Below are positions 37,566 through 45,503 of a stretch of DNA of 64,000 nt, in pieces. Source of the stretch: Leptotrichia wadei (GTDB taxonomy: Bacteria > Fusobacteriota > Fusobacteriia > Fusobacteriales > Leptotrichiaceae); assembly GCF_007990545.2 (NCBI RefSeq), contig NZ_AP019829.2, forward strand, positions 2,108,001 through 2,172,000. The letters run 5' to 3'. Position numbers and translations under genes: made by a program. Below the pieces are notes generated by a model. That model was not told the origin of the DNA, made no database searches, and saw only the letters and a program-made list of their open reading frames with translations. Position 1 is the stretch's first letter, and each line of letters opens with the position of its first letter.

Positions 37566-38390
37566 TTAAATATTCTTTGCTCTTTCCAAAAACAATTCCT
37601 GCAATTTCACAGCTTCTCCATCTTCTGTATTTGCTCCAACAAATTCAAAATCCGTTGGCAGCAGTTTTCTTAATCTGTCTATGGAATTTCCCATCGCATA
37701 ACCTTTCCCAACCATTGTAAGCATTTCAAAATCGTTTTCACCATCACCAAAAGCTACCGCATCCTTCAGTTCCAAGCCTTCTCTTTCTAACAGGAATTTT
37801 GCCGCTGCACCCTTATTGGCTCCTTTTGCCATAATTTCCATACAATAATCGGTAACAAAAATAACATTTACATCATTTCTTATTTTCAAGATGGCTTTTT
37901 CCAAGTTTATAAGCTGCTCATGTTCTCCAATGTAGAATATTTTTAAAATATCCAAGTTTTTCAATTCATTCTTTGGGACTTCCTTAAAGTCAACTTTTAC
38001 ATCCCTCGAAATTCTGTCATACACTTTTTGAGCCGTTCCCTTTGTAATAATCCAGTCGTTTCCTGAAAAAATATTTAAATGTGAACCTTCAGCTATGCTT
38101 TCATAATCCAGCCCCAAGATTGCCTCTGCCGCTTCTTTTGGCAAGCCTTTTTCATAAATCATATTTCCATCTGCATCAAAGATTCTTGCACCATTTGCAG
38201 CTATAATAGGAATTTTTACCTCAAGCTGCTCAGTTATATACCCAATCTGGTCATAACTTCTACCTGAAGCAATATAAAAGTTTATTCCTTTTTTTATTAT
38301 TTCCTTTGTTATATCTTTAGTAAATTTTGTAACATGATGCCCTCTGCTTAGTAAAGTTCCATCCAAATCACTGATAACTGCTTTATACAT
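37566..38390 (-). CDS. Cof-type HAD-IIB phosphatase 1
   Basis: 274 residues. Motif I DLDGTLL (8-14), motif II ASGRSYDQIG region, motif III Lys (GAAAKFLLE), motif IV GDGENDFEML. C2B-capped HAD proteins dephosphorylate sugar phosphates, flavin or pyridoxal phosphates; the substrate cannot be derived. 52 bp from the second HAD gene, same strand, so perhaps one operon, but with only about a third identity to it. Confidence 0.88.
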   Translation of the reverse strand: MYKAVISDLDGTLLSRGHHVTKFTKDITKEIIKKGINFYIASGRSYDQIGYITEQLEVKIPIIAANGARIFDADGNMIYEKGLPKEAAEAILGLDYESIAEGSHLNIFSGNDWIITKGTAQKVYDRISRDVKVDFKEVPKNELKNLDILKIFYIGEHEQLINLEKAILKIRNDVNVIFVTDYCMEIMAKGANKGAAAKFLLEREGLELKDAVAFGDGENDFEMLTMVGKGYAMGNSIDRLRKLLPTDFEFVGANTEDGEAVKLQELFLERAKNI

Positions 38391-38441
38391 AAACTCCCCT
38401 TTCCTATTTCTTTAATTTAGTTATTCTCAAATTTTAATTTT

Positions 38442-39254
38442 CTATAAATTAAATAATTCCCTTAATTTTTTTGCCATCCCATCTTCAGCATTACTTTCAA
38501 TAACTTCAGTATCTGAAAGTTTTTCAAGCAGCAAATAAATTGAATTTCCCATCGCAAATCCAAGCCCAGTTTCTGTTATCAATTCATAGTCATTCAATCC
38601 GTCACCAAATGAAATTGCATCTTTTAATGTAAGTCCGTCTCTTTCTAGTAGTACTTCAGCCGCTTTTGCCTTATTGCAGTTTGCTGAAAAAACTTCCAAA
38701 CTTCCTTCGTTCGCAAATAAAAGACTTACATTTCCATCTCCAACCACTTTTCTTATTTCATTTTCAAGTCCCAGCAATTCATCGTGATCTTCCCCAAGAA
38801 AAAATATTTTTGTAAAATTATGCTTTTTAAATTCTTCAGGAGTAATTTGCTCTGGATATCTAGTTCTATCAGGCTTTTTATTGTAAAAATATTCTCGTAA
38901 ATCTTCAGTAACAAACCAATTTGGTCCAGAATATCCAGTTATAATTATATCTTTCCCAAACGACTTGTAATCAATATTCAAGACTTTATCCAAATATTCT
39001 CGCTTCAAATTATTTGAAAAAATTTCATTCCCATTTTCATCAAAAGCGACAGATCCGTGTGAAGTAATAAGCGGAACTTTCACGCCAAGTTCATCCATCG
39101 CTTCTTTTGCTCCTAAATAATTTCTTCCAGTCGCAATATAAAATTTTATTCCTTTTTTCAATAATAATTCTACTGTTTCCCTAGTAAATTCACTCACTTT
39201 ATGTTCTGCATTCAAAAGTGTACCGTCCAAATCACTTACAACAGCTTTAAACAT
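38442..39254 (-). CDS. Cof-type HAD-IIB phosphatase 2
   Basis: 270 residues: DLDGTLLNAEHKVS, ATGRNYLGAKEAMDELG, SANCNKAKAAEVLLERDG, FGDGLNDYELI. Very close to the protein from 40018 (same cap segments, for example TEDLREYFYNKKPDRTRYPEQI versus its counterpart), so a recent duplication. AGGAGAGAA ribosome site. Substrate unknown. Confidence 0.88.
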   Translation of the reverse strand: MFKAVVSDLDGTLLNAEHKVSEFTRETVELLLKKGIKFYIATGRNYLGAKEAMDELGVKVPLITSHGSVAFDENGNEIFSNNLKREYLDKVLNIDYKSFGKDIIITGYSGPNWFVTEDLREYFYNKKPDRTRYPEQITPEEFKKHNFTKIFFLGEDHDELLGLENEIRKVVGDGNVSLLFANEGSLEVFSANCNKAKAAEVLLERDGLTLKDAISFGDGLNDYELITETGLGFAMGNSIYLLLEKLSDTEVIESNAEDGMAKKLRELFNL

Positions 39255-39414
39255 TTATTCTCTCCTTCTTTTATTATGTAAAAATCTATAAGAAATTATA
39301 CTTTATTTAGTTTTTTTATCCATCGTAAAGAAAATTTATAGCAAATCTGCTATTATAAACGAAGAATAGTATAAAACCTCATTAATACAGCTATTTTTTC
39401 AATTCTTTATATTT

Positions 39415-39777
39415 TTATAAAAATAATTTTGAAAACTCATTCATAAATTCCTCTTCATTAAAAGGTTTTGACAAAAATGCCTTTGCTCCAGCTTCTTTCC
39501 CCATTTTCATATAATTAGGAAACATAACCATTGTACTGCAAATCATGATTCTAGCTTCCTTATCCAAATCCGTAATAACTTGTGCAGCTTTTAATCCGTG
39601 CATTCTTGGCATATTTATATCCATTGTTACAACAGATGGGTTTACCTTTTTATACATTTCCACAGCTTCCAGCCCATCGCTTGCTTCATACACTTTATAT
39701 CCCTGTTCTTCAAGAATATCCTTTATGTCCTCTCTAATATATGATGTATCATCTACAACCAATGCAATTTTATTCAT
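39415..39777 (-). CDS. Orphan CheY-like receiver protein
   Basis: 120 residues, a single receiver domain: acidic pair Asp9-Asp10, phosphoacceptor Asp53 (TMDINMPRMHG), Ser/Thr in ICSTMV, Lys in LSKPF. No output domain and no histidine kinase or chemotaxis gene nearby. AGAAGGGAA before the ATG. Its partner cannot be guessed from context; it lies between two related HAD phosphatase genes. Confidence 0.9.
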   Translation of the reverse strand: MNKIALVVDDTSYIREDIKDILEEQGYKVYEASDGLEAVEMYKKVNPSVVTMDINMPRMHGLKAAQVITDLDKEARIMICSTMVMFPNYMKMGKEAGAKAFLSKPFNEEEFMNEFSKLFL

Positions 39778-39896
39778 TTTTTCCCTTCTCTCTTTATTTA
39801 TTTACTATTTTAAAACTAAATTTATTTAATAATAAAATATTTTAATTCTCTGTAAATTTATTATTTAGATCTGTTCGATAACTTAATTTTTTTATT

Positions 39897-39921
39897 TAAC
39901 AAAGGGTCAAGCTCTCTTGCT
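39897..39921. repeat. ACAAGGGTCAAG-type repeat arm
   Basis: AACAAAGGGTCAAGCTCTCTTGCTTC resembles TAAAAGGTCAAGGTCTCTTGCTAGC at 49286 and the reverse complement of 3046-3066. The rest of the spacer 39778-40017 is A/T-rich and shows no gene. Confidence 0.45.
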
Positions 39922-40017
39922 TCAGAACATTTATTTTATTAAATTCTGAACAAATATAATTTCCGAACAAGTCTATTATTTAAATAAAAAATAGAATATT
40001 TAAATTTTATATTTTTA

Positions 40018-40824
40018 CTAAATCTTAAATATTTCCCTTACTTTCCTTGCCATCCCATCTTCAGCATTGCTTCCAATAACTTCTGTATCTGTTAATTTTT
40101 CAAGCAGTCTATAAATTGAATTTTTCATTGCAAATCCAAGTCCAGTTTGAGTTATTAAATCATAATCATTAAATCCATCTCCAAATGAAACTGCATCTTT
40201 TAACAACAGTCCATCCCTTTGAAGCAAAAATCCAGCTGCCACAGCCTTATCGCAGTCACTTGAAAAGATCTCCAAACTTTTTTCGTTTACAAATACGATA
40301 TTAACTTCATTATTCGTTACTTTTCTTACTTCCTTTTCTATTTCCAGCAGTTTTTTATGCTCGCCTAGAAAAAATATTTTTGTAAAAGCAAGTTTTTTAA
40401 AGTTATCCCACTCAATTTGCTCTGGATACTGCTTCCTATTTGGCTTTTGAGCATAAAAATAATCTCTGGCATCTTCCGTAACGTACCAATGATTACCTGA
40501 GAATCCATTTAAAATTATTCCTTTATCAAACGATTTATAGTCAATCGAAAAAATTTTGTCCACATATTTTTGTTCAATATTATTCACGTAAATTTCTCTT
40601 CCATTTTCATCTACAATCCTAGCGCCATTTGACGTAATCAAAGGAATTTTCAGTCCAATTTCATCCATAATTTCCTTTGCTCCGACATATCCACGTCCAG
40701 TTGCAATATAAAACTTTATCCCTTTTTCCAGCAGCAATTCAATTGTTTCCTTTGTGAATGGACTAACTTTATGCTCTTCATTTAAAAGCGTCCCGTCCAG
40801 ATCACTTACAACAGCCTTATACAT
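40018..40824 (-). CDS. Cof-type HAD-IIB phosphatase 3
   Basis: 268 residues with DLDGTLLNEEHKVS, ATGRGYVGAKEIMDEIG, SSDCDKAVAAGFLLQRDG, FGDGFNDYDLI. Sister of the gene at 38442; same length and cap. AGGAGG ribosome site. Together three HAD-IIB genes lie within 3.3 kb. Confidence 0.88.
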   Translation of the reverse strand: MYKAVVSDLDGTLLNEEHKVSPFTKETIELLLEKGIKFYIATGRGYVGAKEIMDEIGLKIPLITSNGARIVDENGREIYVNNIEQKYVDKIFSIDYKSFDKGIILNGFSGNHWYVTEDARDYFYAQKPNRKQYPEQIEWDNFKKLAFTKIFFLGEHKKLLEIEKEVRKVTNNEVNIVFVNEKSLEIFSSDCDKAVAAGFLLQRDGLLLKDAVSFGDGFNDYDLITQTGLGFAMKNSIYRLLEKLTDTEVIGSNAEDGMARKVREIFKI

Positions 40825-44242: not shown

Positions 44243-44280
44243 GAAAAACTTGCCAGTCCAGTAAATAGAACTGACAGGCA
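44243..44280 (-). terminator. Terminator of the small hydrophobic peptide gene
   Basis: Minus strand TGCC..AGTTC pairs with GGACTGGCA (9 bp with a 4-nt bulge), loop TATTTACT, followed by AGTTTTTC. Confidence 0.7.
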
Positions 44281-44311
44281 TAAGGTGGGAAGAACAATGG
44301 GATTTACTTAA

Positions 44312-44383
44312 TTATTTTTGACTACTAAAGAATAAAAAAGCAGCAATTGTAACTGCTAAAACAGTCAAATCCCAGTTCATCAT
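44312..44383 (-). CDS. 23-residue hydrophobic peptide, type I toxin-like
   Basis: ATG at 44383 with GGGAGGTGG 5-6 nt upstream, TAA at 44312. The peptide MMNWDLTVLAVTIAAFLFFSSQK has one membrane-spanning stretch (about residues 6-19) with a short polar tail. Its transcription unit is complete: promoter (44443-44470), a 5' stem-loop, strong ribosome site, ORF, terminator. This is the layout of type I toxins of the Ldr/Fst/TxpA kind, membrane peptides controlled by an antisense RNA. I could not find a convincing antisense promoter, and no family homologue is recognised, so toxin function is inference. Confidence 0.6.
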   Translation of the reverse strand: MMNWDLTVLAVTIAAFLFFSSQK

Positions 44384-44415
44384 TGAGACCACCTCCCAAC
44401 ATATCGAACATAACA

Positions 44416-44436
44416 TCAAGGTTTGTGAAGCCTTGA
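44416..44436 (-). promoter_or_regulatory. 5' stem-loop of the small-peptide mRNA
   Basis: TCAAGG and CCTTGA (6 bp) with a 9-nt loop, at the predicted 5' end of the transcript and about 33 nt before the ribosome site. Confidence 0.55.
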
Positions 44437-44442
44437 CAAATG

Positions 44443-44470
44443 ATTATAACATAAAAAAAATCCCATTCAA
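44443..44470 (-). promoter_or_regulatory. Promoter of the small-peptide gene
   Basis: TTGAAT (44465-44470), 16-nt spacer, TATAAT (44443-44448). A second extended -10, TGtTATAAT, lies upstream at 44536-44544 on the same strand. Confidence 0.65.
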
Positions 44471-44594
44471 TAATGAACAAGACTTTTTTCTCACAATTTG
44501 TTATATTCAACTTGTTGGTTTTTTTACTCAAAAATATTATAACACTTCTAAAGATAAATTTCAATACTAAAAAATTAATTTTTTTTATTTTCTG

Positions 44595-44636: not shown

Positions 44637-45503
44637 ATGAAAACAACCATAGATTTTATAATATTCTCAATTTTTTATATTTTTATAAAAATCTTTAACT
44701 TTTTTCCACCGAAAATTCGTCTAAAAATATCTGAATTTATTGGTGTTTTGCTTTTTTATCTCATTCCAAAAGGAAGAAAATTGTCGTATCGTAACTTAAA
44801 TTTGATTTTAAATGAACAAAATAGTTTTAATTATTCAAAGAAAAAAATTAAGGAAATTGCGATAAAATCTTATAAAAATACAGCAAAGTCGTTTTTACTG
44901 CCTTTTTGGATATATGAATATTTTGAGAATTTCCCGCCAAAAACATATAATTCCAAATTACTGGAAAAATTAAAGAGTGAAAATGAACGAATTATTCTTG
45001 TTACTTCACATTTTGGATTTTTTCATGCAAGTCTTTTTCCAACGGGAAATGATAGAATGTTTATCCCAATTAGAATTATTCCAAATAAATTTATTGAATC
45101 CTATATGGATAAAATTCGTTTTAGAAACAATATGACTTATTTTCCGGAGCAAAATTACAAGTCCTTTTTGAAAAATAAAAATTCAAAGGGCATTTTTGTG
45201 CTTTTAAGTGATGTAAGAAAACCAGGTGGCGATAAAATCACATTTTTTTGATTACCTACCACTAATTCAGGCTTTCCTGCCTATTTTTCCAAGAAAGAGA
45301 ATATTCCGATTGTTATTATTCACAATGAAGTTGATAAAAACAATATTTGCCACATTTTTATAGACAAAGTCATCCATCCTGAAAATTACAAAAATAGACA
45401 CCAAATAATGAAATCTATTTTAACTGAATACGAAAAAATTATACTAAAACTGCCAGAGCAATGGTTCTGGTTTCAGGAAAGATGGAAAGAATTAGAGAAA
45501 TAA
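44637..45503 (+). pseudogene. LpxL/HtrB-like acyltransferase interrupted by in-frame TGA
   Basis: The reading frame runs 204 codons to a TGA at 45249-45251, then stays open in the same frame for 83 more codons to TAA at 45501. The joined product of about 288 residues has LpxL family character throughout: N-terminal membrane helix, GRKLSYRNLNLIL, VTSHFGFFHAS, KITFF*LPTTNSGFPAYFSKK, and EQWFWFQERWKELEK. The conserved residue at the stop is Gly, so a single G-to-T change (GGA to TGA) explains it. The HX4(D/E) catalytic motif reads HFGFFH, lacking the acid. Both point to decay, unless TGA is read through or miscalled. Confidence 0.8.

What the first reader, a model, noticed from the sequence alone, without database searches (positions are those of the whole stretch)
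44243..44544. Complete small-peptide locus that looks like a new type I toxin
Seen: on the minus strand TTGAAT-16-TATAAT, a 5' stem-loop TCAAGG/CCTTGA, GGGAGGTGG, a 23-codon ORF coding a single hydrophobic helix with a polar tail (MMNWDLTVLAVTIAAFLFFSSQK), and a terminator. A second extended -10 lies upstream. Known: type I toxins (Ldr, Fst, TxpA, BsrG) are such peptides with structured leaders. Inference: a toxin, or another membrane micro-protein, in a phylum with few described type I systems. The antisense RNA was not found.
Basis: partly seen in the sequence, partly recalled or inferred. Interest (0 to 1): 0.7.

Follow-up and report, generated by a model that had tools for sequence, protein, structure and literature searches.

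The report
Leptotrichia toxin peptide with tandem antitoxin RNA
A 23-residue membrane peptide gene in an oral Leptotrichia bacterium is preceded, on the same DNA strand, by a small RNA gene whose product is complementary to the peptide's own messenger at the ribosome-binding site; dozens of co-evolved copies on chromosomes and small plasmids make it very likely a new, oddly arranged family of RNA-controlled toxin-antitoxin system in a phylum where the literature searched lists none of this type.

Summary
The 'second extended -10' upstream (P1, TTGAAA-17-TATAAT) drives a predicted ~75-nt RNA on the SAME strand. It ends in a terminator whose 3' arm supplies the -35 of the peptide promoter (P2). 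Its 5' part pairs with the peptide mRNA leader up to the Shine-Dalgarno (19 of 20 positions), plus the 5' hairpin loop.

The genome holds four such loci. About 40 occur in 12 of 13 Leptotrichia species, and one in a neighbouring genus; three sequenced plasmids carry it. Pairing is far above shuffles (0/300 in 30 of the first 31 loci), specific for the own partner (mean -29 versus -13 kcal/mol), and seeds change together with targets, even at one fixed chromosomal position. Several toxin frames are broken while the RNA is kept.

Best reading: a new type I toxin-antitoxin family, with the antitoxin RNA encoded in tandem upstream and acting in trans by blocking ribosome loading. Reviews read here describe antitoxins on the opposite strand or divergent, and do not list Fusobacteriota. 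A second, sequence-unrelated group with the same tandem layout, pairing at the start codon, exists in two other Leptotrichiaceae genera. Toxicity and transcripts are untested.

The parts
44536..44564 (-). P1: promoter of the antitoxin sRNA (TTGAAA-17-TATAAT, extended -10)
   Evidence: 11 of 12 consensus positions, best of the region; an equivalent -10 precedes the sRNA in nearly all relatives
44453..44530 (-). Predicted antitoxin sRNA, about 75-78 nt
   Evidence: between P1 and a terminator; folds into a 17-bp terminator hairpin with a largely free 5' part, z -2.5
44499..44518 (-). sRNA seed CCAACAAGUUGAAUAUAACA, pairs with leader 44415-44396 (19 of 20 positions incl. G-U)
   Evidence: read directly; duplex -30.8 kcal/mol against shuffled mean -12.3, 0 of 300
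44490..44496 (-). sRNA second contact UUGUGAG, pairs with the 5' hairpin loop CUUCACAAA
   Evidence: part of the RNAduplex optimum; the matching element changes with the loop in other loci (UGCGA/UCGCA, UUUGCAGAA/UUCUGCAAA)
44453..44490 (-). Rho-independent terminator of the sRNA; its 3' arm also holds most of the -35 (TTGAAT) of P2
   Evidence: 17-bp stem then U-run; module TTGAATNGG..T7..TATAAT found at three loci of this genome by pattern, backward control 0
44443..44470 (-). P2: promoter of the peptide mRNA (TTGAAT-16-TATAAT)
   Evidence: 10 of 12 consensus positions
44416..44436 (-). 5' stem-loop of the mRNA; loop is the second sRNA contact
   Evidence: both-sided changes keep pairs in 3 of the 5 stem pairs of the alignment
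44396..44415 (-). sRNA target in the leader, abutting and overlapping the first G's of the Shine-Dalgarno
44389..44397 (-). Shine-Dalgarno GGGAGGUGG
44312..44383 (-). ORF of 23 codons plus stop, MMNWDLTVLAVTIAAFLFFSSQK (putative toxin)
   Evidence: relatives at 43-96% identity in 12 of 13 species of the genus
44251..44276 (-). Terminator of the peptide mRNA
   Evidence: conserved in relatives

Best explanation
A type I toxin-antitoxin module of a new family with an unusual tandem layout. P1 makes a short, untranslated RNA that stops at a terminator; P2, whose -35 lies inside that terminator, makes the mRNA of a 23-residue hydrophobic peptide. The sRNA acts in trans: it meets the loop of the mRNA's 5' hairpin and zips up over about 20 nt that end at the Shine-Dalgarno, so the 30S ribosome cannot load and the duplex is open to RNase III. 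If sRNA synthesis stops, for example on plasmid loss or under stress, the mRNA is translated and the peptide inserts into the membrane. Shown: sequence elements, complementarity, co-variation, specificity, conservation, plasmid carriage. Inferred: transcription, translational block, RNase III, toxicity.
For: Complementarity beats shuffles: 0 of 300 in 30 of 31 loci, 1 of 300 in the other; 0 of 300 in 6 of 7 further loci. Own partner against partners of other specificity: mean -29.3 against -12.7 kcal/mol over 38 loci; own-genome 4x4 matrix diagonal -26.5 to -33.3, off-diagonal -7.6 to -17.0. 17 distinct seed/target pairs 96% paired, swapped partners 49%. At one syntenic locus seed and target changed together (L001/L004/L006/L008 against L005/L007/L009). 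Small single-helix peptides, mostly under purifying selection. Unannotated copies on three small Leptotrichia plasmids. Toxin frames broken with sRNA kept: L010, L049, L080, L109. Several loci per genome and a tandem duplicate.
Against: No transcript or toxicity data. One locus (L044) keeps an intact peptide frame without any upstream sRNA, and no cognate seed was found in that genome at one mismatch; its P2 has, however, lost the -35 as well. The 3'UTR masking of the SD seen in single folds is only weakly above shuffled 3'UTRs (0.75 against 0.58) and not recovered in the alignment fold, so this common type I hallmark is not established.
Confidence: 0.77

Rival explanations
1. The same tandem sRNA controls a small membrane peptide that is not a toxin (a regulator or stress micro-protein).
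For: Toxicity is untested; the peptide frame is mostly under purifying selection; an orphan copy without sRNA exists.
Against: Plasmid carriage, several orthogonal copies per genome, tandem duplication and repeated loss of the toxin start or frame with the RNA kept fit an addiction module better than a housekeeping peptide.
Confidence: 0.16
2. Cis-acting attenuation: P1 transcription reads through into the ORF, and the two complementary segments form an intramolecular hairpin that masks the SD; no free sRNA works in trans.
For: Both segments lie on one strand about 100 nt apart, so a read-through RNA would pair with itself; the start-codon group has the same order.
Against: A 17-bp terminator and an independent promoter lie between the two segments; P2 transcripts lack the masking arm, so cis masking would leave the main mRNA uncontrolled.
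Confidence: 0.05
3. Type III toxin-antitoxin system (RNA gene, terminator, toxin on one strand).
For: Same gene order as type III as described in PMC8167048.
Against: Type III toxins are endoribonucleases and the RNA consists of repeats bound by the protein; here the product is a 23-aa hydrophobic helix and the RNA is complementary to the mRNA.
Confidence: 0.01
4. Chance ORF with accidental inverted repeats.
For: AT-rich intergenic DNA gives many short ORFs.
Against: Conservation in 12 of 13 species and co-varying pairing in about 40 loci.
Confidence: 0.005

Closest known systems
tisB/istR-1, shoB/ohsC, zorO/orzO, dinQ/agrB (E. coli type I with a non-overlapping antitoxin gene)
   Same: Small hydrophobic peptide; adjacent sRNA gene not opposite the toxin; complementarity limited to the 5' leader; duplicated copies in zor/orz (PMC3919570, PMC4147584).
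   Different: [quoted passage not shown] here the sRNA is on the same strand, in tandem, its terminator forms the toxin -35, and pairing abuts the SD. The peptides match no Pfam or NCBIfam family above cut-off.
Fst/RNAII, TxpA/RatA, BsrG/SR4 (Firmicutes type I)
   Same: Short hydrophobic peptide, structured mRNA, plasmid or chromosome.
   Different: Antitoxins are convergent and overlap the toxin gene (fst, txpA: PMC4147584; BsrG from general knowledge); here there is no overlap and no opposite-strand RNA is predicted.
Ldr/Rdl, Ibs/Sib, Hok/Sok
   Same: Multi-copy small membrane toxins held by antisense RNA.
   Different: Cis-encoded on the opposite strand; no family match; no Rfam match in the locus.
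Type III (ToxIN, TenpIN)
   Same: RNA gene, terminator and toxin on one strand.
   Different: Protein-RNA mechanism with an RNase toxin and repeat RNA; neither is present here.
msoT1/msoA1 of Microcystis (PMC12390103)
   Same: Type I system proposed outside Proteobacteria, Firmicutes and Tenericutes.
   Different: Cis-encoded antitoxin in a cyanobacterium.

Membership tests
Type I toxin-antitoxin (general) | Antitoxin is an RNA with its own promoter and terminator | tested here: met
   P1 11 of 12 and a 17-bp terminator hairpin, conserved; prediction from sequence, no transcript data
Type I toxin-antitoxin (general) | RNA is complementary to the toxin mRNA at sites that control translation | tested here: met
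Type I toxin-antitoxin (general) | Toxin is a small hydrophobic peptide | tested here: met
   21-24 aa, hydrophobic core and polar tail, read from sequence
Type I toxin-antitoxin (general) | Antitoxin encoded on the opposite strand or divergent (usual layout) | tested here: not met
   same strand, tandem; PMC12390103 and PMC4147584 state the usual layout; PMC8167048 mentions 'parallel' in general terms without naming an example in the passage read
Type I toxin-antitoxin (general) | Toxin mRNA kept inert by structure until processed | tested here: inconclusive
   SD paired with the 3'UTR in single folds, weakly above shuffles, no alignment support
Type I toxin-antitoxin (general) | Over-expression toxic, rescued by the RNA | not testable with these tools
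   needs a growth experiment
Fst, Ldr, Hok, TxpA and other curated toxin families | Sequence match to the family model | tested here: not met
   no relevant Pfam or NCBIfam family in any of 14 members; only weak chance-level Pfam hits, best E 0.031
Known RNA families (Rfam antitoxins) | Match to a covariance model | tested here: not met
   no match up to E 1
Type III toxin-antitoxin | Endoribonuclease toxin and repeat RNA upstream | tested here: not met
   23-aa peptide; non-repetitive RNA

The most novel reading that the evidence does not exclude
A distinct 'tandem' class of type I toxin-antitoxin systems, seen in Leptotrichiaceae in two sequence-unrelated forms: one pairs with the SD and hairpin loop, the other with the start codon (L118, L121, L122, L123, L119). 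Antitoxin RNA and toxin mRNA are read in the same direction, and the antitoxin terminator doubles as part of the toxin promoter, so antitoxin transcription could also hold back toxin transcription. Seed and target diversify freely and give many orthogonal pairs per genome and per plasmid.
Probability: 0.5. Interest if true: 0.85.

Novelty: new variant of a known kind. Interest (0 to 1): 0.74.

Why it matters
A 2025 paper lists type I systems only from Proteobacteria, Firmicutes and Tenericutes, with one cyanobacterial addition (PMC12390103), and its search method looks on the opposite strand only. A tandem same-strand antitoxin would be missed by such scans, so the layout may be more widespread. 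About 40 co-varying toxin/antitoxin pairs give a natural data set on how sRNA-mRNA specificity evolves, and the plasmid copies are candidates for addiction modules in an oral genus.

Tried and rejected
Opposite-strand antitoxin: no convincing promoter on + leads into the toxin; the TTGACA-17-AAAAAT match at 44433-44461 points away from it. Weak peptide hits outside the group (L035, L036, L052, L053) lie inside larger proteins or lack the module. Pattern hits in other families of the phylum (for example L067, L071, L072, L073) show no strong upstream complementarity and no such ORF. Further BLAST hits in the own genome (L059, L062, L063, L064) are only AT-rich fragments. 3'UTR-SD masking first looked universal but the shuffle control weakened it. 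No relevant Pfam, NCBIfam or Rfam match, no phage match, no viral-contig match. The 23-residue query was too short for the search for related loci, and tblastn on plasmids gave nothing, although the DNA search did.

Full report
Observation. The 23-codon ORF runs 44383-44312.

Relatives. The peptide has two relatives in the same genome. A fourth, more divergent locus at C1:433824 (MMNSDVVTFIVMVMILYIIFNK) was found through the conserved terminator/promoter DNA. In the genus, 12 of 13 species carry one to several copies. Another genus of the family (G014) has one intact copy (L034) and one with a damaged frame (L080). No convincing copy was found elsewhere in 98 genomes of the phylum. The genus is Leptotrichia: one hit genome is L. 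hongkongensis, and plasmid records identify L. wadei and L. hofstadii. Within subgroups pN/pS is 0.33-0.39, except one subgroup with only three synonymous changes.

The missing antitoxin. Between P1 and P2 lies a predicted ~75-nt RNA ending in a 17-bp terminator hairpin followed by U's. The 3' arm of that hairpin overlaps the TTGAAT of P2. Its 5' part, CCAACAAGUUGAAUAUAACA, pairs with UGUUAUGUUCGAUAUGUUGG, which ends inside the Shine-Dalgarno (19 of 20 positions). UUGUGAG pairs with the loop of the 5' hairpin. RNAduplex gives -30.8 kcal/mol against -12.3 for shuffled sRNAs. The same test gave 0 of 300 shuffles in 30 of the first 31 loci and 1 of 300 in L026, and 0 of 300 in 6 of 7 further loci (L101: 1 of 300).

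Co-variation and specificity. Seventeen distinct seed/target blocks are 96% paired, with several pair types at all positions; with partners swapped the value is 49% (maximum 71% in 2000 permutations). That control does not re-optimise the swapped pairs, so the energy matrix is the fairer one: own partner mean -29.3, partners of other specificity mean -12.7 (1204 pairs; 8 of them reach the weakest own-partner value). In the window's genome the four sRNAs prefer their own mRNA: diagonal -30.8, -26.5, -33.3, -28.8; off-diagonal no better than -17.0. At the window's own chromosomal position, orthologues have two different seeds, each with its matching target. This is hard to explain other than by selection for sRNA-mRNA pairing.

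Mobility and decay. Three small Leptotrichia plasmids carry the module without annotation: pJMUB3936p3, pJMUB3934p3 and pJCM16775-3. pJMUB3934p3 and pJCM16775-3 carry nearly the same module next to different neighbouring genes. In several loci the toxin frame is damaged while the sRNA stays: start codon lost (L010, L049), frame cut short (L109) or replaced after a few codons (L080). One locus (L044) shows the reverse, toxin frame intact and sRNA gone, but there the -35 of P2 is gone too and no matching seed was found in that genome.

Mechanism. The best-supported model is translational block in trans by loop contact followed by zippering across the ribosome-loading region. Transcription from both promoters, RNase III cleavage and toxicity are inferred. 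Masking of the SD by the 3'UTR, common in type I mRNAs, appears in single folds, but against shuffled 3'UTRs the excess is modest (0.75 against 0.58), and the alignment fold does not recover it; I leave it open. In the genomic layout P1 transcripts end inside P2, so a transcriptional interference component is possible but untested.

A second tandem group. In two other genera of the family (G029 on C1, C23 and C100; G018 on C2) a sequence-unrelated hydrophobic peptide of about 23 aa has the same order P1 - short RNA - terminator - P2 - ORF. There the RNA is complementary to the start codon and first codons (12-14 bp), again with co-variation: UAAACGAACCAU/AUGGUUCGUUUA, CGAUAUAACAUAU/AUAUGUUAUAUCG, CGAAUGAACAUA/UAUGUUCAUUCG, AUGAAACGAUGCAU/AUGUAUCGUUUCAU. 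Two copies sit on a 6.9-kb contig with replication- and mobilisation-like ORFs (judged by eye, not by a family search). The layout is therefore not an accident of one family.

Comparison with the known. The system works like type I. It fails the usual description only in layout: papers read here place antitoxins on the opposite strand (PMC12390103) or divergent (tisB, shoB, zor, dinQ; PMC4147584); one review says 'divergent, convergent or parallel' in passing (PMC8167048, citing a 2008 review that was not held), so I do not claim that a parallel layout was never mentioned. The gene order recalls type III, but the mechanism and the protein do not. No paper in the library linked Leptotrichia with type I toxins, and the F. 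nucleatum transcriptome paper searched does not mention type I systems. The library lacks most subscription journals, so an earlier report cannot be excluded.

Noticed in passing
L118, L121, L122, L123 (G029) and L119 (G018): A second, sequence-unrelated tandem module: same-strand RNA complementary to the start-codon region of a 23-aa hydrophobic ORF, co-varying among copies, partly on a plasmid-like contig.
   Followed up: partly
L044 1-1390 (G011:C12): Toxin-like frame without upstream sRNA; an unrelated terminator hairpin sits directly before the -10. Possible orphan toxin, or silenced by loss of the -35.
   Followed up: partly
L103 (G014) and L106 (G012): MINRDFLVFIILVVILTFWFNR-type peptides with the terminator/-10 unit but no clear sRNA seed upstream; decayed or differently controlled members.
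   Followed up: no
window 44637-45251: Reading frame that looks like a lipid A-type acyltransferase stops just after a run of T at about 45243-45249, and plausible protein sequence continues in another frame: frameshift, pseudogene, phase-variable tract or sequencing error.
   Followed up: no
window 37566-40824: Three paralogous HAD-type hydrolase genes near each other on the minus strand, with a CheY-like single-domain response regulator between them (39415-39777).
   Followed up: no
L015 (G009:C1 1650844-1651363): Two toxin/antitoxin modules of different specificity in direct tandem within about 400 bp.
   Followed up: partly
L111 979-1209: A 231-bp stretch just upstream of the plasmid module is 98.7% identical to a stretch on an L. 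shahii plasmid (NZ_AP019828.1), hinting at a mobile unit next to the module.
   Followed up: no
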